From: Sulfurimonas gotlandica GD1
Lineage (GTDB): Bacteria > Campylobacterota > Campylobacteria > Campylobacterales > Sulfurimonadaceae
Length of the DNA: 64,000 nucleotides
Assembly: GCF_000242915.1 (NCBI RefSeq)
Contig: NZ_AFRZ01000001.1
Location: 1 to 64,000 of the forward strand
Direction of reading: 5' to 3'
Positions 39,774-62,165 of the stretch are shown here, piece by piece; the stretch's first letter is position 1; each line of letters begins with the position of its first letter. Made by a program: the position numbers and the translations under genes. Under the pieces are notes generated by a model. It did no database searches. It was given only the letters and a program-made list of their open reading frames with translations, and was not told the DNA's origin.

Positions 39774-40074
39774 TTATGATGTGTGAGTGAGAGTAAGCAT
39801 AAGTCGATGGAAAATACTCTCTAAGACTTCCATCATCTTTATATATTGAAAACATATCACTCATACTCCTGTGTCTTATAAAAGTAGCTTCCGTAGAGAT
39901 TGCAAGATCTGGAAGTCCGCTTATACTGACAAACTCTTTTCTTTTGTTTTGAGACTCAAGACTGAGAGTTTTTGTTGCATTAAGATAAATACCCTCTGCT
40001 ATTAAAATAGCAACTAGAGAAGCTAGTATAAACAACAGACGAGGAGTCTTTTGAGTGTATTTATATTTATTCAT
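39751..40074 (-). CDS. Small membrane-anchored periplasmic protein of the NosL operon
   Basis: A 107-residue protein with one N-terminal hydrophobic helix (about 13-29, LLFILASLVAILIAEGIYL) and a periplasmic tail containing His and Met residues (FIRHRSMSDMFSIY, AYSHSHIING). The tail could contact metal or the permease. No family recognised. It overlaps the NosL double-domain gene by 8 bases and the permease by 23 bases, so its product probably works with both. Confidence 0.6.
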   Translation of the reverse strand: MNKYKYTQKTPRLLFILASLVAILIAEGIYLNATKTLSLESQNKRKEFVSISGLPDLAISTEATFIRHRSMSDMFSIYKDDGSLREYFPSTYAYSHSHIINGQTNAK

Positions 40075-41164
40075 CTAGTTTATGTACTTCAAGCGCATTT
40101 ATTTCGTCAAATTTTAAGACTTTAATACCTTTATGATCCATACTAAAAGTTTTAGCATCCGAGAGTTTTTCAAAAGGTATAAGCTCATCTCCCATAGGTC
40201 CGTAAACGTCACTGCCAAAGACGAAGTAAGATTCTCTGGCTTCTATAGCTTTTTGAGAGTAGTAATCTGTAACTAATATTTTAGAGATGCCCTCTTTATG
40301 CTCATAATAGTATTTCATCATATCTTTTGCACCATCAAATGAGTAATGTCTATCAGCATAAAAAATCTGTGCTGCCCACTTAGGGTATTTATATACAAAC
40401 ATTCCACAAATCGGACACTTTTCATCTTCGGTTACATGAATTTTACCCTCTATATTATCCAAGTCACCAAAGCGTTTTACTTCCCACAGATAGAGCGCAA
40501 GAACTTGAAGCTTTTCCTCATTTAAAGGCTTACATAGTTCTTTATTTTTTATATCTGCTTTTAGCTCATTTATCTCTATATAGTTTGTTACATCTATATC
40601 TTTGTTACACATTTTTTCAAATATTCTTTTACCCATCGGATAGAGTTTTTTAATCTTTTTATTTTTTATAGACTCTATGTCAGAGAAAAGCGACTCTTGT
40701 GCAGATTTTAGTGCCTCGTCGAAAGAGACTATCTTTCCTTTATACTTTTGAACATGTTTTTTTGCATCTTCTTCTTTAGCAAAAGCTAACTTGCTTACTT
40801 TGCTCATAGTTCCTTTTACTTTTGAACCAATAACATAATAAGCACTCTTTGCATCTATTAACATCTCCGTTGTTGCGTCTACAACTTGTATGCTCTTACT
40901 GTCGATACCGTACTCTTTTTTATCCATAACCAGACATCTCATAGAGCAGTATTGTCTTGAGGTTTTATTTTGAAGTTGTGATGTGTGATTTGTTTTGTAA
41001 TATATCTTTAGACTCATGCCACAGACCGGACACCAATGTTTTTCATCTCCTTTTTGAACAAGCACAGGTTCTTTTGAAGCTTCTTTAGAAAAATTGTTTG
41101 CATTTAAATTTAATGAAGAGAAAATTAGTAGAGTAATTAAAATAAATATTTTTATTGTTGTCAT
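40067..41164 (-). CDS. Two-domain NosL-like metal-binding protein
   Basis: A 365-residue exported protein (signal peptide about 1-22) with two NosL-type domains. The first (about 40-155) has CPVCGMSL, YCSMRCLVMD and IDAKSAYYVIGS. The second (about 245-360) has CPICGMFV, a DGAKDMMKYY segment in place of the second Cys pair, and EARESYFVFGSDVYGPMG. A helical linker with two Cys (MCNKD, ELCKP) joins them. NosL family knowledge suggests Cu(I) binding and delivery. No nosZ is present here, so the client is unclear. It follows the single-domain NosL gene after a hairpin at 41227-41256. Confidence 0.85.
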   Translation of the reverse strand: MTTIKIFILITLLIFSSLNLNANNFSKEASKEPVLVQKGDEKHWCPVCGMSLKIYYKTNHTSQLQNKTSRQYCSMRCLVMDKKEYGIDSKSIQVVDATTEMLIDAKSAYYVIGSKVKGTMSKVSKLAFAKEEDAKKHVQKYKGKIVSFDEALKSAQESLFSDIESIKNKKIKKLYPMGKRIFEKMCNKDIDVTNYIEINELKADIKNKELCKPLNEEKLQVLALYLWEVKRFGDLDNIEGKIHVTEDEKCPICGMFVYKYPKWAAQIFYADRHYSFDGAKDMMKYYYEHKEGISKILVTDYYSQKAIEARESYFVFGSDVYGPMGDELIPFEKLSDAKTFSMDHKGIKVLKFDEINALEVHKLDE

Positions 41165-41226
41165 ATAATTCCTTAATTAACAAGAAGTATTATTTTATCT
41201 GAAATTATTTATGGTAACTTGAAAAA

Positions 41227-41256
41227 TACCAAAACTATGACTTCATAGCCTTGGTA
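41227..41256 (-). terminator. Hairpin terminator or attenuator after the first NosL gene
   Basis: Minus-strand stem taccaaggctatga / tcatagttttggta, with two G-T pairs, closes a very short loop and is followed by tttttc, a proper terminator layout. It stands between the first NosL gene and the rest of the operon. It may therefore uncouple expression of the abundant single-domain protein from the downstream transporter genes. Confidence 0.7.
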
Positions 41257-41269
41257 ATTCTAATATTTT

Positions 41270-41977
41270 TTATCTTCTACCTAAGTAGATTCCGACAGCT
41301 TGAAGTTTTTTACCACTCATATCTCCACAAAGCTTATTTGATTGAATATAAGCTTTAGCCTCAGCAGTTGATTTGAATTTTAAGTCAGTTTTTTTGCACA
41401 TTTTATTGTACATCATCTCACCTTTTTGAGCCATCATCGCTTGTTTCTCAGCAATCATCTTCATCTCTTTTTCCATACTATTTGAAGCAATTTTATATGT
41501 TTCATCAAAGTTTTCAACTTTACCGCCAAACTTCTTAGCAAAATCCTGGGCATCTTCTTTTTTAGCAAAAGCATACTTACTGACCATACTCATAGTACCT
41601 TTTTTACTACTACCTACAACATAGCTAGCAGTTCTTGCGTCTATAAACTCAAGAGTTGTAACATCAACAACAATTATGTCTTTTAATATACCTTTGTTTT
41701 TCATGTTTGTCTCTACCAAACAGTGCAGAGAACAATACTGCTCTACATGCTCACCGTTGTTAGCGGCATGATTTGTCTTATAAAACATTGGAAGATTCAT
41801 CCCACAAGCAGGACAGAACATCTTTGCTTTTCCACCCTGCATGATAGTAACTTTATTCATATCTACACTTTGAAACATCTCCATCTGATTGTTTCCCTGA
41901 GCATCACCTTTAGGCTCACCCATTCCAGCAAAAACCAAAGTACTCAGTACTAATATACCAGCAATAATCTTTTTCAT
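41270..41977 (-). CDS. NosL-like metal-binding protein
   Basis: A 235-residue exported protein (signal peptide 1-17). The NosL domain has CPACGMNLPMF, a second pair in YCSLHCLVE, FIDARTASYVVG and the GTMSMVSKYAFA region. The C-terminal 70 residues are helical with MCKKTD and KLCGDMSG, similar to the linker of the two-domain homologue next door, so the two genes arose by duplication. First gene of the operon, with AGGAG before the ATG and an 11-bp-period direct repeat at 42021-42037 upstream. Confidence 0.87.
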   Translation of the reverse strand: MKKIIAGILVLSTLVFAGMGEPKGDAQGNNQMEMFQSVDMNKVTIMQGGKAKMFCPACGMNLPMFYKTNHAANNGEHVEQYCSLHCLVETNMKNKGILKDIIVVDVTTLEFIDARTASYVVGSSKKGTMSMVSKYAFAKKEDAQDFAKKFGGKVENFDETYKIASNSMEKEMKMIAEKQAMMAQKGEMMYNKMCKKTDLKFKSTAEAKAYIQSNKLCGDMSGKKLQAVGIYLGRR

Positions 41978-50114: not shown

Positions 50115-50149
50115 GTTAAAGCCTGCTACTACTTAGCTGCTGCTTTAAC
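50115..50149. terminator. Hairpin between convergent lpxA-like and thioredoxin genes
   Basis: gttaaagc (50115-50122) and gctttaac (50142-50149) form an 8-bp stem with a 19-base loop, followed by ctctttt. It spans the 20-bp gap and the end of the convergent thioredoxin gene and may end transcription from the left. Confidence 0.5.
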
Positions 50150-50521
50150 CTCTTTTAGTTTATCAGAAAAATCTTTCTTATTTACACCACCATCGATTCT
50201 ACCTATTTTTTTCTCATGTTTATTTAAAAAGTGGAATGTCGGTGTTCCCATATATGTTAAATCATCATTTGGTATAAAACCTTTATATATATCTATATGA
50301 ACAGGAATAAAATCTTTGTAAAGCTCTTTTAAAACTACATCATCATCAAATACTATATCTTCCATATATTCACAAGCTACACAATTTTCTCTACTTAACA
50401 TTACCATGATAATTTTATTTTCTTTTTTGGCAAGTTCTAAGGCATCATCATACTCAACCCATTTTATTTCAGCAAACAGGGAACTAATCAATAAACTTAT
50501 TATTAATATTATTTTTTTCAT
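50129..50521 (-). CDS. Periplasmic thioredoxin-like protein
   Basis: A 130-residue protein: signal peptide 1-17, then a thioredoxin fold with active site ENCVACEYM and cis-Pro in MGTPTFHF. The WVEYDDALELAKKENK start is typical of SoxW-type and DUF255-like thioredoxins. It begins 10 bases after dsbD, so it is probably reduced by DsbD and passes electrons to periplasmic thiols, perhaps SoxY or cytochrome apoproteins. Confidence 0.85.
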   Translation of the reverse strand: MKKIILIISLLISSLFAEIKWVEYDDALELAKKENKIIMVMLSRENCVACEYMEDIVFDDDVVLKELYKDFIPVHIDIYKGFIPNDDLTYMGTPTFHFLNKHEKKIGRIDGGVNKKDFSDKLKEVKAAAK

Positions 50522-50531
50522 TTTTTCTCTT

Positions 50532-52325
50532 TTATATCTTATTCAAGTGTGTCAAAAACTCATCTGGTTCTATAAAACCTATGATAGTTTTAGACTTTAT
50601 AACTTTAGAGTCTTTATCAAAAAAGAGTATTGCCGGAGGGCCGAATACTCCATACTTTTTACTTAAGTCTTTTTGCTCTTTTTTGTTATCTGTAACATCT
50701 GCTTGTATTAGAATAAACTCATCCATCTTATTTTTAACACTCTCATTTGCAAATGTAACTTCTTCTAACTCTTTGCATGATGTACACCAGTCAGCGTAAA
50801 AATCAAGCATTATCTTTTTGCCTTTATGCTTAGACAAAAGCTCATCCAACTCTGCGATTGAAGTTACTTTAACAAACTCAGTATGTTTTCTCTCTATTTT
50901 AGTAACAGTAGACACTACTTGTGGCTTTAGAAATGATAATGGCTTGATCATACTTGTTGAGCCGCCTAAAACACCTATAAAAAGAGCTACTGAGTATATA
51001 AACATTATTACTGCGACACTTCTTTTAAATATATGTGAATCTTTATCAAAAGTACCTAAATAAATAGCAAAACCAATACCCAGCATAGAGTAAAGTATCA
51101 TAGTTACATATACGTCAGCTACACGTTCTAGCATCCATACAGCAACTCCTAGCATCATAACACCAAAGATTGCACTAACCATAGTCATCCATGCACCAGG
51201 CTTAGGCATAAACTTACCTGCACTTACACCAACTATGATAAGAGGAATACCCATACCGATACTCATAGAGAAAAGTGCCATACCACCAAGAACTGCATCT
51301 CCAGTTTGACCTATATATACAAGAGCGCCTGCCAGTGGGGCAGCTACACAAGGCCCAACAATAAGAGCTGATAAGAATCCCATTATTGCTACACCAATAA
51401 ATCCGCTTTTATGTTTAGAAGAACTTACTTTTGAAACCAAAGAGTCAGGTAGTTTAAGCTCATAAAAACCAAACATACTAAGTGCCAGTGCTACAAAAAC
51501 ACCTGAGAATGAATAAATAACCCAAGGAGTCTGAAGAGCAGCTTGAAGGTTAGAACCAAAAAGCCCGGCTAAAACACCTGCCACTGTATAAGCAACTGCC
51601 ATAGCAAGAACATAGACCATAGAGAGCATAAATGCTTTTTTAGTTGTTATTCCATCACCCTGAGAGATAATAACTCCTGAGATAATTGGAATCATAGGGA
51701 ATACACATGGAGTGAGTGCAAGAAGTAGACCAAAGCCTAAAAATGTTAAAAGAATTACAAAGATATTTCCAGATTTAATAGTATCTGCAATAGCATCTGA
51801 CTCAGACAACTCTTCTTTAACAGGCTCTACCTTTTCTTCTTTTTTTGTCTCTATTTTTTTAACATTTAGACTTTTTAACTCTGGCTTTTTTATAGATGCT
51901 TCATCTAATTTAGATGTATCAATATCAAAGTTATAGACCGTTGTCAGAGGCTCATAACATAAACCCTGCTCAGAACAGCCCTGATAAGAAAAACTAAGCT
52001 CAATATTCTTAATTCCTGTGACGCCACTCTCTTTTTGCAGAGTTACTACAAAACTTGGTGACTCTAAGTAGACCATCTCATCATGATGCTCAACACTTTT
52101 TGGCCCATCTTTTTTAGCTATAGATATACCACTGCCCTCTTTTAGAGAAAACTTTGTCTGTTCTTCATATACATAGATATCTTTAGCAATCTTGAGAGTA
52201 ACCTCTATCTGCATCTGTGAGTTAACTTTTGCATCTGATATAAATGCCTCATCTGGCATTAAAAATTTAGGAGTAGCGGCTAAAATAAGTGTGGATGTAA
52301 AAAGGATTAAAAGTAGTTTTTTCAT
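50532..52325 (-). CDS. dsbD: Thiol:disulfide interchange protein DsbD
   Basis: Carries electrons from cytoplasmic thioredoxin across the membrane to periplasmic proteins. About 597 residues. The N-terminal immunoglobulin-like domain has GCSEQGLCYEPL. The eight-helix core has ALTPCVFPMIP and IVGPCVAAPLAG. The C-terminal thioredoxin domain has ADWCTSCKELE. The frame extends to 52352, but a TATAAT promoter (52355-52360, minus strand) lies directly before it. So ATG 52325, which starts the signal peptide MKKLLLILF, is preferred. Confidence 0.93.
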   Translation of the reverse strand: MKKLLLILFTSTLILAATPKFLMPDEAFISDAKVNSQMQIEVTLKIAKDIYVYEEQTKFSLKEGSGISIAKKDGPKSVEHHDEMVYLESPSFVVTLQKESGVTGIKNIELSFSYQGCSEQGLCYEPLTTVYNFDIDTSKLDEASIKKPELKSLNVKKIETKKEEKVEPVKEELSESDAIADTIKSGNIFVILLTFLGFGLLLALTPCVFPMIPIISGVIISQGDGITTKKAFMLSMVYVLAMAVAYTVAGVLAGLFGSNLQAALQTPWVIYSFSGVFVALALSMFGFYELKLPDSLVSKVSSSKHKSGFIGVAIMGFLSALIVGPCVAAPLAGALVYIGQTGDAVLGGMALFSMSIGMGIPLIIVGVSAGKFMPKPGAWMTMVSAIFGVMMLGVAVWMLERVADVYVTMILYSMLGIGFAIYLGTFDKDSHIFKRSVAVIMFIYSVALFIGVLGGSTSMIKPLSFLKPQVVSTVTKIERKHTEFVKVTSIAELDELLSKHKGKKIMLDFYADWCTSCKELEEVTFANESVKNKMDEFILIQADVTDNKKEQKDLSKKYGVFGPPAILFFDKDSKVIKSKTIIGFIEPDEFLTHLNKI

Positions 52326-52354
52326 ATAAATTTGCCTATTAAAATAATTCAATT

Positions 52355-52360
52355 ATTATA
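52355..52360 (-). promoter_or_regulatory. Promoter -10 box of dsbD
   Basis: TATAAT on the minus strand in ttagttataataatt. The same ttagttataat context occurs at 63929-63934 before the Cache protein gene. Its position implies transcription starts near 52348, just inside the longer reading of dsbD, which supports the downstream start. Confidence 0.5.
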
Positions 52361-52437
52361 ACTAATAAAAATGTGATATCTATTATCTTTTTTGATATAA
52401 ATGGAGTCTAAATTCGTATTGTCACAAAACTGTTACT

Positions 52438-52467
52438 ATAATTAGCAACTAAAAAGTTGCTAATTAT
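52438..52467. terminator. Perfect 13-bp palindromic hairpin after the DsrE gene
   Basis: ataattagcaact (52438-52450) is the exact reverse complement of agttgctaattat (52455-52467), with a four-base loop. The stop codon of the DsrE gene (52460-52462) lies inside it. It has no long T-run on either side, so it may protect the mRNA 3' end as well as terminate. It marks the end of the soxH-DsrE block before dsbD. Confidence 0.6.
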
Positions 52468-52927
52468 CACGAACAGGAATGTACGCAAAACCTTCATTTT
52501 GCTTGTCTATTAAACCAATAGTAGATGTTGGCACTAATTGAACAAAGTCAAATAAATTGTTTTTTTCTAACTTGTTTTTCTCCATTCCAACTTTACACAT
52601 CAAAAACTCAACATCATATGCTTCTGACATAGTAGAAATTCTTTTTTTCAAGTCTGCATGTACTTTTATAAGTTCTTTATCATCTTTATAGATAGTACCT
52701 TTAAGATCTTTTAAAAAATATCTATATGCTTCACCATGAATAACAACTGCTACTTCCAGCTCTTTTAAATTATTTCTATAGTGAGTTTTACTAACTTCGA
52801 TTCCCTTTAGAATATTCTTTTCAAACTTAGCAACACTACTTGTTGTAAGATCAATAACAACTCTTGGTGTCGCATCTTCAGCACTAAGAAGACCTATAAA
52901 CGCTAGCAATAATATGAATTTCTTCAT
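52460..52927 (-). CDS. Exported DsrE-family protein
   Basis: A 155-residue protein with a signal peptide (1-16) and a DsrE-like fold: RVVIDLTTSS, ELEVAVVIHGEAYRYFL and a conserved cysteine in VEFLMCKVGM. DsrE/DsrF-like proteins carry sulfur on such a cysteine. The exported form in a sox neighbourhood suggests periplasmic sulfur or persulfide handling. Ten bases after the DUF302 gene. Paralogue of the gene at 53891. Confidence 0.82.
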   Translation of the reverse strand: MKKFILLLAFIGLLSAEDATPRVVIDLTTSSVAKFEKNILKGIEVSKTHYRNNLKELEVAVVIHGEAYRYFLKDLKGTIYKDDKELIKVHADLKKRISTMSEAYDVEFLMCKVGMEKNKLEKNNLFDFVQLVPTSTIGLIDKQNEGFAYIPVRDN

Positions 52928-52936
52928 TATAATTCC

Positions 52937-53857
52937 TTATTCTGTTACTTCTTTTAAGATTGACTCAAAATCCTTCTGAGCTTGTTGAAGCACTGCTTTG
53001 GCTTCTTTGTCTTCAACTTTTGCACTACTCATCCAGTTGTAAACTGCCGGAAACCCAAGAACAACTTTATCCTCATCTTTTTTCTTGTATACCATCAGAG
53101 TACAAGGTGCAAATGCAGATGCTTCAGGACGTGTTTGAGATACTGTGTATATAACTTTTAATTTACAAATAGAGTAAGTAACATAAAAATCAAATGGACT
53201 CTCTACTGTTCCCTCTTTTGTCATCTCAGCATTGAAGTCCATATAGTTTGGCGTTACAAAACCAAATGGTTTAAAGCCGTTTTCTAAACCTAATTCTAGT
53301 TCTTCTTTCACACCTTCCCACTCTGCACCATCTAACTCAAATTCAAACTTAGAAACAAGTGATCTGCTCTCTTTTAAACTATCTTCACTATAGCCATGTT
53401 TTGCATTTGCAAGGGCACTTTTAATAGATTTAAGTACCTCTTTTTCTATAGTTCTTAATAGTTCATCATCAAATCCGAGAATCTTTGCTTGAGCTTCTGA
53501 TGTTAACGTAGAAACATGCAGAGTATCTTCATTTAAACCTTGATATATACCAACACCAAGTGGAGTAAATACACCGGCATCTGGATGTTTTTTCACTAAA
53601 TCCTGAGATAGTTTTGTATGATACACAGTTAAAAGTGTAAACACTTTAAAGTCAGTCTTTTGAAACTGCTTTTTAAATGGAAGATTCATCTCACTGTTGA
53701 CGGCGATACTAAAGCCATTATCTGTAAATGCTTTTTCAATTGTTGTTGGTGTAATTACACCTTTTTTATTGTCTACATCAAACAGATGCAGGTCTCCTTG
53801 TGCGAACACTATACTAGCACTAAAAAGTGCAACAAACATAAGAATTATTTTCTTCAT
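52937..53857 (-). CDS. Exported protein with two DUF302 domains
   Basis: A 306-residue protein: signal peptide 1-19, then two DUF302-type units (about 40-140, FKVFTLLTVYHTKLSQDLV and GVFTPLGVGIYQGL; about 190-290, SICKLKVIYTVSQTRPEASAFAPCTLMVYKK). The second has the P-C-T-L-x-V segment seen in the family. DUF302 function is unknown, but these genes often accompany sulfur oxidation and DsrE genes in Campylobacterota. SD AAAGGA precedes the ATG. Confidence 0.8.
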   Translation of the reverse strand: MKKIILMFVALFSASIVFAQGDLHLFDVDNKKGVITPTTIEKAFTDNGFSIAVNSEMNLPFKKQFQKTDFKVFTLLTVYHTKLSQDLVKKHPDAGVFTPLGVGIYQGLNEDTLHVSTLTSEAQAKILGFDDELLRTIEKEVLKSIKSALANAKHGYSEDSLKESRSLVSKFEFELDGAEWEGVKEELELGLENGFKPFGFVTPNYMDFNAEMTKEGTVESPFDFYVTYSICKLKVIYTVSQTRPEASAFAPCTLMVYKKKDEDKVVLGFPAVYNWMSSAKVEDKEAKAVLQQAQKDFESILKEVTE

Positions 53858-53890
53858 TTTTTTTCCTTTTATATTTTAAATTTAACCAGA

Positions 53891-54325
53891 TTAAGGGACT
53901 ATGTTGACCCAGCCCTCTTTAACTCTCTCTATCATCTCAACTATTCCAGCCGTTACGATTTGGGTATCTTCTATTAGTTCTTCTTCTTTTATATTTTTTG
54001 TCTTCATTGTGTTGCCACAAGCTACAAACTCTACATCAAGAAGTTTCAAAGCTCTTACTCTAAGTGCTATCTCTTTGTTGGCTTTTAATAGAGCTTTTAT
54101 CCCGTGATAATAAGCAACTATTCTCATCTGAACATTTTCAGGACCATAGAACTTCAGCACATTATTTGCACTACTTAGCACATGATGTATATCTTCATCA
54201 TTTGCACTTTTTATGGAAAAAACTATTTGACGTTGGTTATCAATAGCAGGTTTTGGCTCTGCAAACTCTGTTTCAGCAGATGCCAATAAAGCAAAAGTAA
54301 GTAAAACAAGTAGAAATTTAATCAT
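53891..54325 (-). CDS. Exported DsrE-family protein
   Basis: A 144-residue protein: signal peptide 1-17, then a DsrE fold with QIVFSIKSANDEDIHHVLSSANNVL, MRIVAYYHGIKALL and the probable sulfur-carrying cysteine in VEFVACGNTM. Starts with ATG overlapping the stop of the thioredoxin gene (ATGA). Likely part of the periplasmic sulfur-handling set with the neighbouring thioredoxin and SoxH-like protein. Confidence 0.83.
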   Translation of the reverse strand: MIKFLLVLLTFALLASAETEFAEPKPAIDNQRQIVFSIKSANDEDIHHVLSSANNVLKFYGPENVQMRIVAYYHGIKALLKANKEIALRVRALKLLDVEFVACGNTMKTKNIKEEELIEDTQIVTAGIVEMIERVKEGWVNIVP

Positions 54326-54696
54326 TTAATCCCCTTTGTAAGATCTTTAAAGTCCTCAATATTCCAAGAACCAGGTATTGTCTTCAATATCTTTTTATTT
54401 GAATCTACAAAATAAAAGGTAGGTGTAAAATGTACTTTTATACCTAGTGGCAACTCTTCATTGTTTAAGTTTATTTTAACAGAGATAAATCTCTCATTTA
54501 ACCACTTACTCATTTCTTTGTCTCTAAAAACATTTCTGTCCATATCTTCACAATAGTGACATCCTGTTTTAACTACATCTATCATTATGATTTTTTTACT
54601 CTGTTCTTGAAGCTTTAAAGCATCTTTATACGAGTGAAACTCAACTGATAAAAGAGAAGAAGCAGTAATAAGTAAAACGATTAGTATCTTATTCAC
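54322..54696 (-). CDS. soxW: SoxW-like periplasmic thioredoxin
   Basis: A 124-residue protein with a signal peptide (1-17) and a thioredoxin fold: active site KTGCHYCEDMDRNVF and cis-Pro in HFTPTFYF. SoxW-like thioredoxins keep the SoxY cysteine active in Paracoccus and relatives. It lies in the sox region between the MBL hydrolase (8-base overlap) and DsrE. The name is by context and fold; the protein could also serve other substrates. Confidence 0.75.
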   Translation of the reverse strand: MNKILIVLLITASSLLSVEFHSYKDALKLQEQSKKIIMIDVVKTGCHYCEDMDRNVFRDKEMSKWLNERFISVKINLNNEELPLGIKVHFTPTFYFVDSNKKILKTIPGSWNIEDFKDLTKGIK

Positions 54697-55591
54697 TGCT
54701 CCACTCCAACATTCTATACGCTATCTCAACATTTTGTCTATGTAGAGAACCGTACATCTTAAAATCTTTAAAATCTTTCATGCTAACATTGTTTACAGTA
54801 TCGGCTATATCTATCCCATTTTCTAATGCTAATGAAATCTTATCCACTAACTGAGTCAGGTATTTATATGTAGCATCGATTGAGCTCTTGTCTACTATTT
54901 TTCCATGACCACCTATAATATACTTTACATCCATAGATTTTATTTTATCCAGTGCCTCTATCCAATTTTTTAAATTTCCATCTCTTATGGATGGTATTCT
55001 TTCATTAAAGACTAAGTCACCAACAAAAATTGTCGAAAATTCCGGTATATAAATTAAAAGATCACTTTTTGTGTGAGCTTTTTTATTTACACTTTCTATG
55101 TTTATTTCTTTAGCATCTATACTTATTGTTTTATTCTCTACTAAAATATTTGGAAATACTTGTTTAGTCCCTGAATAAGCATCTTCAAGTATATTCATTT
55201 GCATTCTAGTTTTTTCTAGTTTTGTCTCATTTTCAAACTCATTAGAGCCAACAATATCAACACCTATTTCATTGTAAAATGAATTACCTAAATAGTGATC
55301 ATCGTGTGTATGAGTATTTATAACATAAGAGATTGGAAGATCTTTAATCTCTTTCATTTTTGAGTATGCTTGTTTTGCGTACAAGTATGTAGGACCACTA
55401 TCTATCACAAGATAGCTAGTCCCCATATTAACAAAACAGGAGTTGACCATATTACCGTTGTTACGCTCGTCCATCACCTCTGGCAAGCCAAAAAAGCAGT
55501 GTGTCTCTGCACTGACTTTTTGTGGCTTAAGAGTATAATCAAAAGCTAGGAGAGAATGAATGAACACTAAAAGTATTAGAAGTGATTTCAA
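54689..55591 (-). CDS. soxH: SoxH-like metallo-beta-lactamase-fold hydrolase
   Basis: A 300-residue periplasmic protein with a signal peptide (1-16). The MBL metal site is NTHTHDDHYLGN, then HTKSDLLIYIP, FVGDLVFNERIP and GGHGKIV. SoxH-type proteins are found in many sox clusters; their substrate is not known, and loss does not abolish thiosulfate oxidation in Paracoccus. Start is TTG 55591, seven bases after AAAGG. First of the accessory gene string behind the porin. Confidence 0.8.
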   Translation of the reverse strand: MKSLLILLVFIHSLLAFDYTLKPQKVSAETHCFFGLPEVMDERNNGNMVNSCFVNMGTSYLVIDSGPTYLYAKQAYSKMKEIKDLPISYVINTHTHDDHYLGNSFYNEIGVDIVGSNEFENETKLEKTRMQMNILEDAYSGTKQVFPNILVENKTISIDAKEINIESVNKKAHTKSDLLIYIPEFSTIFVGDLVFNERIPSIRDGNLKNWIEALDKIKSMDVKYIIGGHGKIVDKSSIDATYKYLTQLVDKISLALENGIDIADTVNNVSMKDFKDFKMYGSLHRQNVEIAYRMLEWSSE

Positions 55592-58725: not shown

Positions 58726-59499
58726 CTATCTCTTAATACCAGGAACAGCTATTTCTGCGCCCTTAGCTTGATCAGTAAGATAGACTTCTAATGCAACCAT
58801 TTCTGGTGAACCAAGAGGAATAACTTTTAATAAAGCGTTTTTCATACAACCTTGAAAACGACGTTGTAGAGTTCTTAGAGATGATTTAGTCATTCTATAT
58901 GCCGGCCAAGTTGCTGCAACTGCGACACCTTTGTTACTCAGGTCTGGTAGTGGTTGAGTTCTTAAAACTGAACCTATAACATCACTAGAGTGACAGCTTA
59001 AACATGCTAAACCACGTCCACCACGCTTTTGTTCAAACGTTAACTTACCAAGCGCATAAGCATCTTTCATATGTTGATTTGCATTGATATCAATATTACT
59101 TTTCTCACCATTAGCAAGAGTTTTAGCATAAGTACTCATATCAAACATTTCTGAACTTTTAAGCTCAAATGGTTTATGTCCATTTTTACTCATTAATCCC
59201 TGAAGAACTTGATCTACCCCAACTACTTGTTTAAAATCTTCTAAGTAACGAGGAAAACCTGCTATATATGCCGGTAGTTCATCTTCACTTACATTTAAAA
59301 ATGCCGCTAAACCAGCATCTCCACCGCAATACTTACTTAATAGTTCTCCACCATTGGCAACCATAATATCAGCTGGATTGTTTTCTAGCATCTCAGCATA
59401 CATTGCACGGTCTGCATCACTCATTGCGAACTGTTCGCCTCCAAAAGACAATGAAGAAAGAAGTGCAATAGATAGTGCTATTTTAATTCCTGTTTTCAT
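58726..59499 (-). CDS. soxA: Sulfur oxidation cytochrome SoxA (monohaem)
   Basis: With SoxX it oxidatively attaches thiosulfate to the SoxY cysteine. 257 residues with a signal peptide (1-20). Only one haem motif, LACLSCHSS near residue 170, is present; an isolated Cys in LLSKYCGG marks the lost N-terminal haem of two-haem SoxA. The axial, persulfide-carrying cysteine lies in RFQGCMKNA. Starts 4 bases after soxZ. Confidence 0.95.
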   Translation of the reverse strand: MKTGIKIALSIALLSSLSFGGEQFAMSDADRAMYAEMLENNPADIMVANGGELLSKYCGGDAGLAAFLNVSEDELPAYIAGFPRYLEDFKQVVGVDQVLQGLMSKNGHKPFELKSSEMFDMSTYAKTLANGEKSNIDINANQHMKDAYALGKLTFEQKRGGRGLACLSCHSSDVIGSVLRTQPLPDLSNKGVAVAATWPAYRMTKSSLRTLQRRFQGCMKNALLKVIPLGSPEMVALEVYLTDQAKGAEIAVPGIKR

Positions 59500-59502
59500 T
59501 GA

Positions 59503-59838
59503 TTATCCTTTTGGTTTAATCTTTGTACTTTGCTCGTTTACTTCACCAGTGTTATCAGTATATGTAACAGTAAGGTCACCAGCACCATTTATCTTCATAT
59601 ATGTTGTAAATACAGGGTTAGTAGATAGTGATTCCCATACGTTCATAGTTGTAATAACTTTACCGTTATAGTTAAATTTTACACTATTGATATATTTAGC
59701 TGGAACTATTTCTTTAGTTTTTTTGTCTTTACGCATACCAGTTTCCATTGGATGCATAACCATAAAACTTACTTTAACAACTTCGCCATCTTTAAATTTT
59801 TTTGGCTTGATTTTAATTAGTGATTTACCTTTTTCCAT
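59503..59838 (-). CDS. soxZ: Sulfur carrier partner SoxZ
   Basis: 111 residues, no cysteine and no signal peptide. It binds SoxY and travels with it through the Tat pathway. The immunoglobulin-like fold motifs FMVMHPMETGMRKD and VWESLSTNPVFTTYMKI are clear. Lies between soxY and soxA, 50 bases after soxY. Confidence 0.95.
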   Translation of the reverse strand: MEKGKSLIKIKPKKFKDGEVVKVSFMVMHPMETGMRKDKKTKEIVPAKYINSVKFNYNGKVITTMNVWESLSTNPVFTTYMKINGAGDLTVTYTDNTGEVNEQSTKIKPKG

Positions 59839-60372: not shown

Positions 60373-60927
60373 TTATTTTGGAGATACAATATATGAAGTA
60401 ATCTCACATATCTCTTTAGTTGTAAATAACTTAGTAGTTAAGTTAACGGTCATGTGTGTGTCTTTATTATCTATACGAGGATCAGCAATTTTTTGAAAAA
60501 CAAATTGATTATCTCTAACACCAGTTGCCATAAACATATCTTTATAACCTGTTAAATCCGGACCAATATTTCCAGCACCTTTTGCACCTTCTATATTATG
60601 ACAAGCAACACAGTTTCCATATTGTTTATCTGGTATTTTGTCGCCAGGCATATATGTCTTGCCTTCTTGCATTTGCTTTTTAGCCAAACCTTCAGGTGTA
60701 TCGCCTTTTACTTTTGAACCATTTAAATTATGGAATATAAAAGCGCCTCTTGCGATAGCCTTAGGATCAGTTGTAATACAACCAGCCGGCATAGTAAATG
60801 TTTTAGCTGGAGCCAATAGATCTTTTTGAATCAGCTCACTTGCATTTGGTTTCTCTATAACACTACTATAATCAGCAGCGAAAAGTGAAGCACTTACAAG
60901 TAGTGATATCATCACAGTTTTCTTCAT
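60373..60927 (-). CDS. soxX: Sulfur oxidation cytochrome SoxX
   Basis: Electron-accepting partner of SoxA. 184 residues: signal peptide 1-17, one haem motif in YGNCVACHNIEG near residue 108, and a C-terminal Met region (DTHMTVNLT). First gene of soxXYZAB. A very strong ribosome binding site (AGGAGG, plus-strand cctcct 60935-60940) precedes the ATG, and a direct repeat with 11-bp period lies 47 bases upstream. Confidence 0.95.
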   Translation of the reverse strand: MKKTVMISLLVSASLFAADYSSVIEKPNASELIQKDLLAPAKTFTMPAGCITTDPKAIARGAFIFHNLNGSKVKGDTPEGLAKKQMQEGKTYMPGDKIPDKQYGNCVACHNIEGAKGAGNIGPDLTGYKDMFMATGVRDNQFVFQKIADPRIDNKDTHMTVNLTTKLFTTKEICEITSYIVSPK

Positions 60928-61007: not shown

Positions 61008-62165
61008 TTATTTTGTAGAAGTTAATGGAAAAACGTAGAGAAATTCACTTCCTATCTTTGGAGTTGAATCTATTATAAGTTCTATATTAGCCTTGTCAAT
61101 GATTGATTTTACAATGTTTAGTCCGATACCAAAACCGCCTTTGTTAGTGTCTTCACGATAGTATCTACTAAAGATTTTTTCTACTTTTTCTATTCCAACC
61201 CCATAATCTCTAAAACTCATATGACACTTTCCATCTTTCATATATAGCTTTATGTCTATCTTTGAGTTTTCATATGAGTACTTAATCGCATTAGATATAG
61301 TATTGTCAATTACACGTTGAAGTTGCTTTGAATTCATCTCTATATTTGTACACTCTTTTATATCAGAGTTAATTTTAATATCTTTCATCAGAGCGACTTC
61401 ACTAAAATACTCAATCCTCTCTTTTAAAAAAGCACCCATATCTATATTTTCTTTTTCATGCTTAAGTCTGTCATGCTTTATTAGATAATCCATATCGTTA
61501 TATATGTTTGATAAGACCTTTGTTGCAGCTTTCATTCTCTGCATATACTTGTTTGGTTCATTCTTTCTATTATAAAGGTCAATATTTACACTGATAATAG
61601 AGAGTGGTGTGTTTATCTCATGCATGGAATCTTTTATAAAGTTATCTAGTCTTTTGTTCATCTTTTGAAATGGTTTAGCAAAACTTTGTAAGAAGATCAT
61701 ACTCAATATAAAAACTAATATAACTACACTAAAGAGTATGTACATTACTTTTTCATAGACTACAGCGAAAGAGAGTTGGTTCTTGACTATGAGATACTTT
61801 GCACCGAAATATCTATCTTTTGGAAGTTTAACAATCAGGTAAGCGTCATTGTTATCTAAGTGATATCCATCTTTAAAGTACTTTATCTTATAGTTTACCA
61901 AAGAAAAAATTGGTTGAAAACTCTGATCATAAAGACCAGATTCAAATGTTTTAAATCTCGGGTATTCAAAATAGACATCATTTTCATTGTACTCCTGCAT
62001 CGCTTTTATAACTAAGAGGGACTTCTCTTTGAGCAACAACTCATTTTGAATTGAGTGAATGTTTTTCATATATATGAAATAGAAAAAGAGTGGAGTTAAA
62101 AGTATCACTGAAACTAGTGTAGTATATATTAGTGCATACTTTGCAGAGTATTGGCTATCTTTCAA
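61008..62165 (-). CDS. Sensor histidine kinase next to the sox cluster
   Basis: A 385-residue kinase with two membrane helices (about 11-30 and 140-160) flanking a periplasmic region of roughly 110 residues. The H-box is DSMHEINTPLSIISVN with histidine near 190, the N-box NTISNAIKYSYEN, the G1 DYGVGIEK and the lid GGFGIGLNIV. It overlaps the regulator gene by 11 bases. With the Cache protein it makes a three-gene signalling operon that ends 80 bases before soxX. Confidence 0.88.
   Translation of the reverse strand: MKDSQYSAKYALIYTTLVSVILLTPLFFYFIYMKNIHSIQNELLLKEKSLLVIKAMQEYNENDVYFEYPRFKTFESGLYDQSFQPIFSLVNYKIKYFKDGYHLDNNDAYLIVKLPKDRYFGAKYLIVKNQLSFAVVYEKVMYILFSVVILVFILSMIFLQSFAKPFQKMNKRLDNFIKDSMHEINTPLSIISVNIDLYNRKNEPNKYMQRMKAATKVLSNIYNDMDYLIKHDRLKHEKENIDMGAFLKERIEYFSEVALMKDIKINSDIKECTNIEMNSKQLQRVIDNTISNAIKYSYENSKIDIKLYMKDGKCHMSFRDYGVGIEKVEKIFSRYYREDTNKGGFGIGLNIVKSIIDKANIELIIDSTPKIGSEFLYVFPLTSTK

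What the first reader, a model, noticed from the sequence alone, without database searches (positions are those of the whole stretch)
50129..55591. Periplasmic thiol and persulfide toolkit behind the sox genes
SoxH-like hydrolase, two thioredoxins, DsbD, two exported DsrE proteins and a double DUF302 protein form a consecutive, same-direction block after soxB and the porin. DsrE proteins usually act in the cytoplasm; exported versions with a single conserved Cys could receive sulfur from SoxY or store zero-valent sulfur. soxCD is absent here, which makes an alternative route for the sulfane sulfur plausible.
Basis: inference. Interest (0 to 1): 0.65.

Follow-up and report, generated by a model that had tools for sequence, protein, structure and literature searches.

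The report
Exported sulfur carriers partnering SoxB
Next to the thiosulfate-oxidising (sox) genes of a sulfur bacterium sits a set of exported thiol proteins whose key member, a secreted DsrE-type protein with one unchanging cysteine, is present in almost every relative examined that has the SoxB enzyme and missing from nearly all that lack it, so it is probably an overlooked part of the thiosulfate-burning machinery.

Summary
The block is real: SoxH-like hydrolase, thioredoxin, DsrE-A, double-DUF302, DsrE-B, DsbD and a second thioredoxin, all minus strand at 50129-55591, downstream of soxXYZAB and a porin. All seven have export-like N-termini. Conserved cysteines: 116/116 (DsrE-A), 29/29 (DsrE-B), 87/88 for each of a pair (DUF302).

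The same genome has soxCDYZ at about 1.175-1.178 Mb, and DsrE-A follows soxB, not soxC. In 120 genomes of the order it occurs in 35 of 36 with soxB and 1 of 84 without; soxB+/soxC- 11 of 11, soxB-/soxC+ 0 of 6. In 114 genomes of the family it occurs in 74 of 74 with soxB and 0 of 40 without. In six genomes it lies away from soxB. An alphaproteobacterial sox cluster also has exported-looking DsrE proteins.

Best reading: a periplasmic sulfur carrier exchanging sulfur with SoxYZ at the SoxB step, kept working by Trx/DsbD; sulfur binding and direction are inferred. A thiosulfate-induced dsrE beside sox is already in print, as is DUF302 beside sox; the near-obligate link to SoxB was not seen in the papers searched. 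New variant of a known kind.

The parts
54689..55591 (-). SoxH-like metallo-beta-lactamase-fold hydrolase, export-like N-terminus (TTG start)
   Evidence: PF00753 68.7 bits; TIGR04558/04559 about 190 bits, below cut-off; one Cys conserved 73/73
54322..54696 (-). Periplasmic thioredoxin-like protein (CHYC), overlaps SoxH-like and DsrE-A genes
   Evidence: PF13098/PF03190; both Cys of the CxxC in 69 of 77 rows, the other 8 gapped there
53891..54325 (-). DsrE-A, exported DsrE-family protein, invariant Cys103; core partner of SoxB
   Evidence: PF02635; Cys 116/116; co-occurs with soxB 35/36 and 74/74; fold of MTH1491
52937..53857 (-). Exported-looking protein of two DUF302 folds; Cys231 and Cys252 in the second domain conserved
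   Evidence: PF03625 42.7 bits; Cys pair 87/88 each; model pLDDT 90.3, matches 1q9u and 1j3m
52460..52927 (-). DsrE-B, second exported-looking DsrE-family protein, invariant Cys
   Evidence: PF02635 40 bits; Cys 29/29
50532..52325 (-). DsbD, transmembrane thiol:disulfide reductase (likely ATG start at 52325)
   Evidence: PRK00293 537 bits, over cut-off; DsbD_N + DsbD_TM + thioredoxin domain
50129..50521 (-). Second periplasmic thioredoxin-like protein (CVAC)
   Evidence: PF13899/PF13098
55615..56847 (-). Porin between soxB and the block
   Evidence: PF13609/PF07396
56956..58716 (-). soxB
   Evidence: TIGR04486 795 bits, over cut-off
58726..59499 (-). soxA
   Evidence: TIGR04484 202 bits, over cut-off
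59503..59838 (-). soxZ
   Evidence: ORF; homologue of the annotated SoxZ in L162
59889..60362 (-). soxY, with C-terminal GGCG arm
   Evidence: TIGR04488 167 bits, over cut-off
60373..60927 (-). soxX
   Evidence: ORF; homologue of the annotated SoxX in L162
61008..63899 (-). Histidine kinase, response regulator and cache-type sensor (3 genes) upstream of soxX
   Evidence: ORFs; homologues of annotated genes before soxX in L162; kinase and regulator found in 51, sensor in 47 of 80 named loci

Best explanation
The block is a conserved periplasmic accessory module of the Sox system, with DsrE-A as its core. Shown: DsrE-A is an MTH1491-type DsrE protein with an export-like N-terminus and one invariant cysteine, and in the Campylobacterota genomes examined it is an almost obligate companion of SoxB, with or without SoxCD. 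Inferred: Cys103 of DsrE-A exchanges sulfur with the SoxY arm cysteine at the SoxB step, most simply by accepting the sulfane sulfur that SoxB leaves on SoxY (SoxY-S-SH) and buffering it or passing it on to the second SoxYZ, to polysulfide or to another acceptor. The double-DUF302 protein with its conserved cysteine pair is the likeliest thiol partner where present. DsbD and the thioredoxins bring electrons to the periplasm and keep SoxY and DsrE thiols reduced, as SoxV/SoxW/SoxS do elsewhere.
For: Co-occurrence: 35 of 36 soxB genomes vs 1 of 84 others in 120 genomes of the order (Fisher p about 6e-28, not corrected for shared ancestry). Replicate in the family, 114 genomes at least 95% complete: the 74 genomes with SoxB over cut-off are exactly the 74 with DsrE-A, 0 of 40 others. 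The one soxB genome without it (G007) has a lone soxB with no other sox gene recognised in 19 kb; the one extra hit (G058) is weak (E 5.5e-4). DsrE-A starts within 6.3 kb of soxB in 27 of 35, a 28th (G054) has a soxB piece on the same contig; 6 are apart (272 kb in the complete genome G025, on other contigs in five drafts) and G063 is cut by a contig end. All 62 named loci with over 3 kb upstream of DsrE-A have soxB there, while tblastn found other block genes less often: Trx 48, DsrE-B 26, porin 10, DsbD 8 of 80 (lower bounds). A second gene island in Sulfuricurvum holds DsrE-soxY-soxZ-soxB-DsrE-A-nucleotidase-DUF302-like-DsrE-B with no soxXA on its 10.4-kb contig. Two exported-looking DsrE proteins stand beside soxYZABCD homologues in Indioceanicola profundi. 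Invariant cysteines. Fold of the DsrE family. In Sulfurovum indicum dsrE, soxW and soxH1 beside sox are 2.17-3.83-fold higher on thiosulfate than on sulfur (PMC10045233, passages seen).
Against: No biochemical evidence here that any of these proteins carries sulfur, nor which way it moves. One DsrE-family protein, DsrE2B of Metallosphaera, reacted with none of the sulfur compounds tested (PMC4175335 abstract), so the fold alone does not prove the activity. The double DUF302 is not universal: a match at E 1e-60 or better in 20 of 36 soxB genomes, and also in 2 of 84 without (G068, G095). In G175, a genome with 8% contamination, three DsrE-A stand against two full soxB. The Sulfuricurvum assembly with the island also has a normal cluster with soxXA (L100). 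Genomes share ancestry and are not independent samples.
Confidence: 0.5

Rival explanations
1. Redox housekeeping only: thioredoxins, DsbD and DsrE keep the SoxY cysteine reduced or clear wrong mixed disulfides, as SoxS, SoxV and SoxW do in alphaproteobacteria. DsrE acts in repair, not in sulfur flow.
For: DsbD plus two thioredoxins in the block; SoxS reduces false mixed disulfides on SoxYZ and SoxV reduces SoxW (PMC10451225, a figure-legend passage and a reference title); Indioceanicola has a CcdA-type protein and a small thioredoxin-like protein, both named by eye, between its DsrE genes and soxCD.
Against: DsrE-A is found in more loci than the thioredoxin or DsbD (where the query that fetched the loci was DsrE-A itself, so the comparison favours it), and a single cysteine without CxxC suits a carrier better than a disulfide reductase (inference).
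Confidence: 0.27
2. One reading: the exported DsrE proteins are a substitute route for sulfane sulfur because soxCD is missing.
For: Cluster 1 itself lacks soxCD; 11 of 11 soxB+/soxC- genomes have DsrE-A.
Against: The genome has soxCDYZ; 24 of 25 soxB+/soxC+ genomes also have DsrE-A, and it sits inside soxCDYZAB clusters.
Confidence: 0.07
3. Sulfur sensing: exported DsrE proteins pass a sulfur signal to the periplasmic sensor of the three-gene regulator that precedes soxX.
For: A third type, DsrE-C, lies next to a sensor-regulator-kinase cassette in 15 of 20 loci fetched, 3 of them directly before a soxXYZAB cluster.
Against: DsrE-A lies at the far end of the cluster and in 6 genomes away from soxB; this genome has no close DsrE-C (its best match, E 6.5e-10, is DsrE-B).
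Confidence: 0.1
4. Passive linkage: the genes travel with the sox cluster without taking part in thiosulfate oxidation.
For: The cluster can sit on a mobile replicon as a unit, for example on a Sulfurovum mangrovi plasmid.
Against: Six genomes keep DsrE-A away from soxB, yet 83 of 84 genomes without soxB lack it.
Confidence: 0.03

Closest known systems
MTH1491 / ST0148-type DsrE proteins (PDB 1l1s, 2pd2)
   Same: Same fold (1l1s: TM-score 0.95 of the target, 1.2 A); the invariant Cys aligns
   Different: Those chains have no export segment; titled as unknown function; a sox context is not known to me (recalled)
DsrE3A of Metallosphaera cuprina (PMC4175335)
   Same: DsrE-family cysteine protein that carries a sulfur group (thiosulfonate) and hands it to a partner's cysteine
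   Different: Partner is TusA; SoxYZ appears in the passages seen only as an analogy; two cysteines (C93, C101); subgroup not compared here
SoxL of Allochromatium vinosum (rhodanese)
   Same: Proposed to take the sulfane sulfur from SoxY in the periplasm (PMC3368242, passage)
   Different: Rhodanese; proposed where SoxCD activity is replaced; no rhodanese domain among the block's proteins
SoxS / SoxV-SoxW redox partners of alphaproteobacterial Sox
   Same: Periplasmic thioredoxin plus membrane electron donor beside sox
   Different: Here a full DsbD and DUF255-like thioredoxins; DsrE and DUF302 are not part of that set as recalled
dsrE-soxW-soxH1 beside soxABXYZ in Sulfurovum indicum (PMC10045233)
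   Same: Same kind of gene set, higher on thiosulfate than on sulfur
   Different: That paper calls DsrE and SoxW thioredoxins; the passages seen report no link to soxB beyond that genome
DUF302 genes in sox clusters of Acidithiobacillia and Sulfitobacter (PMC5037610, PMC11034169)
   Same: DUF302 gene between soxA and soxB, or between soxF and soxH; two Sulfitobacter species also have a DsrE gene between soxB and soxC
   Different: The Thermithiobacillus one is 191 aa; here two fused DUF302 folds, 306 aa, the first without the cysteine pair

Membership tests
DsrE/DsrF-like family (PF02635) | Profile score over the curated cut-off | tested here: met
   DsrE-A 31.6 and DsrE-B 40.0 bits vs 22.7
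MTH1491-type DsrE | Fold and aligned active-site Cys | tested here: met
   E 8.1e-20 by profile of A3, which also holds DsrE-B and DsrE-C rows; TM 0.95 of target
DsrEFH / TusBCD complex | dsrF and dsrH (tusC, tusB) partners alongside | tested here: not met
   Besides DsrE-A and DsrE-B no such domain among the block's proteins; oligomers not tested
SoxH (quinoprotein relay models TIGR04558/04559) | Score over the curated cut-off | tested here: not met
   190.4 of 300 and 189.7 of 280
DsbD | N-terminal, transmembrane and thioredoxin domains; score over cut-off | tested here: met
   537 vs 330 bits; three domains
SoxL-type sulfur acceptor | Rhodanese domain | tested here: not met
   None among the block's proteins
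Sox sulfur carrier (functional class) | Binds sulfur on Cys and exchanges it with SoxYZ | not testable with these tools
   Needs biochemistry
DUF302 (PF03625) | Profile and fold | tested here: met
   42.7 vs 23 bits; 1q9u, 1j3m

The most novel reading that the evidence does not exclude
Exported DsrE proteins do to SoxY what DsrE3A does to TusA: they carry a thiosulfonate group (from tetrathionate or another polythionate) on their one cysteine and load it onto SoxY, so that SoxB can act without the SoxXA cytochromes. This would explain why DsrE-A follows SoxB rather than SoxCD, and why a natural island holds DsrE, SoxYZ and SoxB but no SoxXA (although SoxXA is encoded elsewhere in that assembly).
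Probability: 0.12. Interest if true: 0.8.

Novelty: new variant of a known kind. Interest (0 to 1): 0.58.

Why it matters
The Sox pathway is usually drawn as SoxXA, SoxYZ, SoxB and SoxCD. If a periplasmic DsrE carrier is a near-obligate companion of SoxB across Campylobacterota, abundant sulfur oxidisers of vents and redoxclines, the pathway there has an overlooked component. It would also bear on an open point: how sulfur moves between the two separate SoxYZ carriers that bacteria like this one encode, one with SoxB and one with SoxCD.

Tried and rejected
Rejected: 'soxCD absent, hence bypass'. Rejected: DsrE-A as a shuttle needed only where two SoxYZ pairs exist; it is also in soxCDYZAB clusters with one SoxYZ pair in the stretch seen and in genomes without soxC. 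Rejected: DUF302 as the universal SoxB partner; 20 of 36 soxB genomes have the long form. Weak or empty: plasmid search with the DUF302 protein gave only Sulfurovum mangrovi; the first plasmid search gave 20 records, of which I opened two; two plasmid searches with the Indioceanicola DsrE proteins gave 30 and 20 records whose neighbourhoods I did not open, so how common exported DsrE is in other phyla is not known here; the promoter scan found fewer sites than shuffles (53 vs 63). The single genome-contig scan kept the best 80 of 276 relatives, so it says nothing about more distant ones. Papers searched for a SoxB-DsrE or exported-DsrE claim: (listings and abstract starts); passages read in PMC10045233, PMC5037610, PMC5248467, PMC11034169, PMC13293266, PMC13047784, PMC3368242, PMC10451225, PMC4175335; none read whole. 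No bioRxiv is held, so 'not seen in print' is limited to these.

Rows dropped before counts: proteins cut by a contig end were left out, one best hit per locus was kept, and starts were chosen by a rule. In one search G054 was counted as soxB+ although its soxB piece (371 of 556 positions) is under the cut-off. L098 and L099 are 99.9% identical over 10.3 kb and count as one island.

Full report
What is there. The window is the first 64 kb of a one-contig, 2.95 Mb genome, completeness 100. It belongs with Sulfurimonas: genome G076, listed as of the same genus, has a contig of 194355 bases like that of Sulfurimonas indica NW8N, and the nearest named loci are Sulfurimonas, Sulfuricurvum and other Campylobacterota (inference). 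The coordinates are right. Gene overlaps and short gaps suggest one transcript from the SoxH-like gene to DsrE-B; a 134-nt gap precedes DsbD (inference).

Export and cysteines. By a simple hydropathy rule, 113 of 116 DsrE-A, 28 of 29 DsrE-B, 84 of 88 DUF302, 63 of 73 SoxH-like and only 52 of 77 thioredoxin homologues have an export-like N-terminus; start sites were guessed by rule, which lowers the counts. The DsrE of the same genome at 1.634 Mb does not. Against MTH1491 the alignment of DsrE-A starts at residue 33 (residue 5 of the chain), so the N-terminal stretch is extra. The DsrE cysteine is invariant in 116 of 116 and 29 of 29; the DUF302 pair is present in 87 of 88 each. In a weak match (E 0.021) to DUF302 structure 1q9u, two cysteines of 1q9u align to the first domain, where this protein has none (read from the printed alignment).

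The soxCD premise. soxC, soxD, soxY2 and soxZ2 lie at about 1.175-1.178 Mb of the same genome, followed by a second SoxH-like gene, a MOSC-like protein, a second double-DUF302 protein and a flavoprotein (soxC and soxY2 by profile; the DUF302 by profile; the others named by eye). So both sox loci of this genome carry a SoxH-like and a double-DUF302 protein.

Distribution. In 120 genomes of the order, DsrE-A was found in 36 and SoxB in 35 over the cut-off, plus one fragment at a contig end. The overlap is 35; exceptions are G007 (lone soxB) and G058 (weak DsrE hit). Split by soxC over its cut-off: soxB+/soxC+ 24 of 25, soxB+/soxC- 11 of 11, soxB-/soxC+ 0 of 6, neither 1 of 78. In 114 genomes of the family at least 95% complete, the 74 genomes with SoxB over the cut-off are the same 74 that have DsrE-A at E 1e-20; none of the other 40 has it. 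G164 has two full soxB genes and two DsrE-A genes; G175 (8% contamination) has two and three. Shared ancestry makes the p-value too small, but families f1, f4, f7, f17 and f20 contain both states among the listed rows.

Linkage is not the whole story. DsrE-A starts within 6.3 kb of soxB in 27 of the 35, and G054 has a soxB piece on the DsrE-A contig. In G025, a one-contig genome, they are 272 kb apart; in G005, G028, G043, G071 and G109, all drafts, they are on different contigs; in the five of these six opened gene by gene (all but G109) no sulfur gene was recognised near DsrE-A by eye. G063 is cut by a contig end. In 80 named loci, soxB is present in all 62 that extend over 3 kb upstream. 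By tblastn the DUF302 protein is in 75 of 80, Trx in 48, DsrE-B in 26, porin in 10, DsbD and the second Trx in 8 each; cut loci and diverged copies make these lower bounds. The type-1 cluster also sits on a Sulfurovum mangrovi plasmid, where DsrE-DUF302-DsrE follow an MBL-fold and a DUF255 gene.

Two further pointers. A Sulfuricurvum assembly, besides its normal cluster (L100), has a 10.4-kb contig with DsrE-soxY-soxZ-soxB-DsrE-A-nucleotidase-DUF302-like-DsrE-B and no soxXA (DUF302-like by eye). SoxXA made elsewhere in that cell could still serve it. In the alphaproteobacterium Indioceanicola profundi two exported-looking DsrE proteins, one 43% identical to DsrE-A, stand convergent to a CcdA-type gene, near a small thioredoxin-like gene and homologues of soxD, soxC, soxB, soxZ, soxY and soxA; soxX was not found by tblastn, though the long soxA frame begins with a SoxX-like stretch by eye.

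Structure. DsrE-A was modelled at mean pLDDT 95.1 with the cysteine at the end of a strand, before a helix; nearest solved folds include MTH1491, ST0148, YchN and, further down, DsrEFH. The DUF302 protein (pLDDT 90.3) matches DUF302 structures; what DUF302 does is not known to me.

Mechanism. Established in general (recalled): SoxXA loads thiosulfate on SoxY, SoxB hydrolyses off sulfate leaving a sulfane sulfur, SoxCD oxidises that sulfur. A protein that follows SoxB irrespective of SoxCD most simply acts on what SoxB makes or uses. The acceptor model is the plainest; the donor model (thiosulfonate, after DsrE3A of Metallosphaera, PMC4175335, abstract and passages) is bolder and fits the island without soxXA. 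Pure redox maintenance remains a serious rival. Steps shown: presence, export-like N-terminus, fold, invariant cysteine, co-occurrence. Steps inferred: sulfur binding, partner, direction, roles of DUF302 and SoxH-like proteins.

What is known. PMC10045233 (passages) reports dsrE, soxW and soxH1 beside soxABXY1Z1 in Sulfurovum indicum, 2.17-3.83-fold up on thiosulfate compared with sulfur, and soxCDY2Z2 with a soxH2-like gene elsewhere. PMC11034169 (passage) lists DsrE and DUF302 genes in some Sulfitobacter sox clusters. PMC5037610 (abstract and passages) describes DUF302 between soxA and soxB in Acidithiobacillia and speculates on trithionate. The ingredients are therefore known; the near-obligate tie of an exported DsrE to SoxB, independent of SoxC, was not seen in these passages or in the listings.

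Noticed in passing
L099:2741-9383 (Sulfuricurvum sp. 17-40-25; L098 is a 99.9% copy): Island of DsrE-soxY-soxZ-soxB-DsrE-A-SoxB-like nucleotidase-single DUF302-like-DsrE-B without soxXA on the contig, beside a normal cluster elsewhere in the same assembly (L100).
   Followed up: partly
L198-L214 (for example L211:8136-12982): A third exported-looking DsrE type (DsrE-C) sits next to a sensor-regulator-kinase cassette in 15 of 20 loci fetched (3 of the 5 misses are at contig ends); in the two read gene by gene it follows a porin (by eye), and in 3 of the 15 the cassette precedes soxXYZAB. Possible sulfur-sensing unit.
   Followed up: partly
G000:C1:1170120-1173064 (L039:2121-5065): Second double-DUF302 protein and a single DUF302-like protein beside soxCDYZ, with a flavoprotein between them and a MOSC-like protein before them (names by eye except the double DUF302).
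   Followed up: partly
G000:C1:1283594-1284043 (L040:5595-6044): A further DsrE protein with an export-like N-terminus; no sox gene recognised in the surrounding 12 kb.
   Followed up: no
G000:C1:106787-108212: YeeE/YedE-type sulfur transporter (438 aa frame) followed at once by a TusA, a possible route for sulfur into the cytoplasm.
   Followed up: no
window 61072-61099, minus strand: A 12-of-12 sigma-70 consensus (TTGACA-16-TATAAT) inside the end of the histidine kinase gene, 145 nt before soxX; the scan as a whole finds no excess of sites.
   Followed up: no
L163:7865-9793 (genome G007): Lone soxB (35% identical to the window's) with no other sox gene recognised in 19 kb, in the only soxB genome of 36 without DsrE-A.
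   Followed up: partly
window 40067-41977: Two exported-looking proteins with CPxCGM motifs resembling NosL (recalled, not tested).
   Followed up: no
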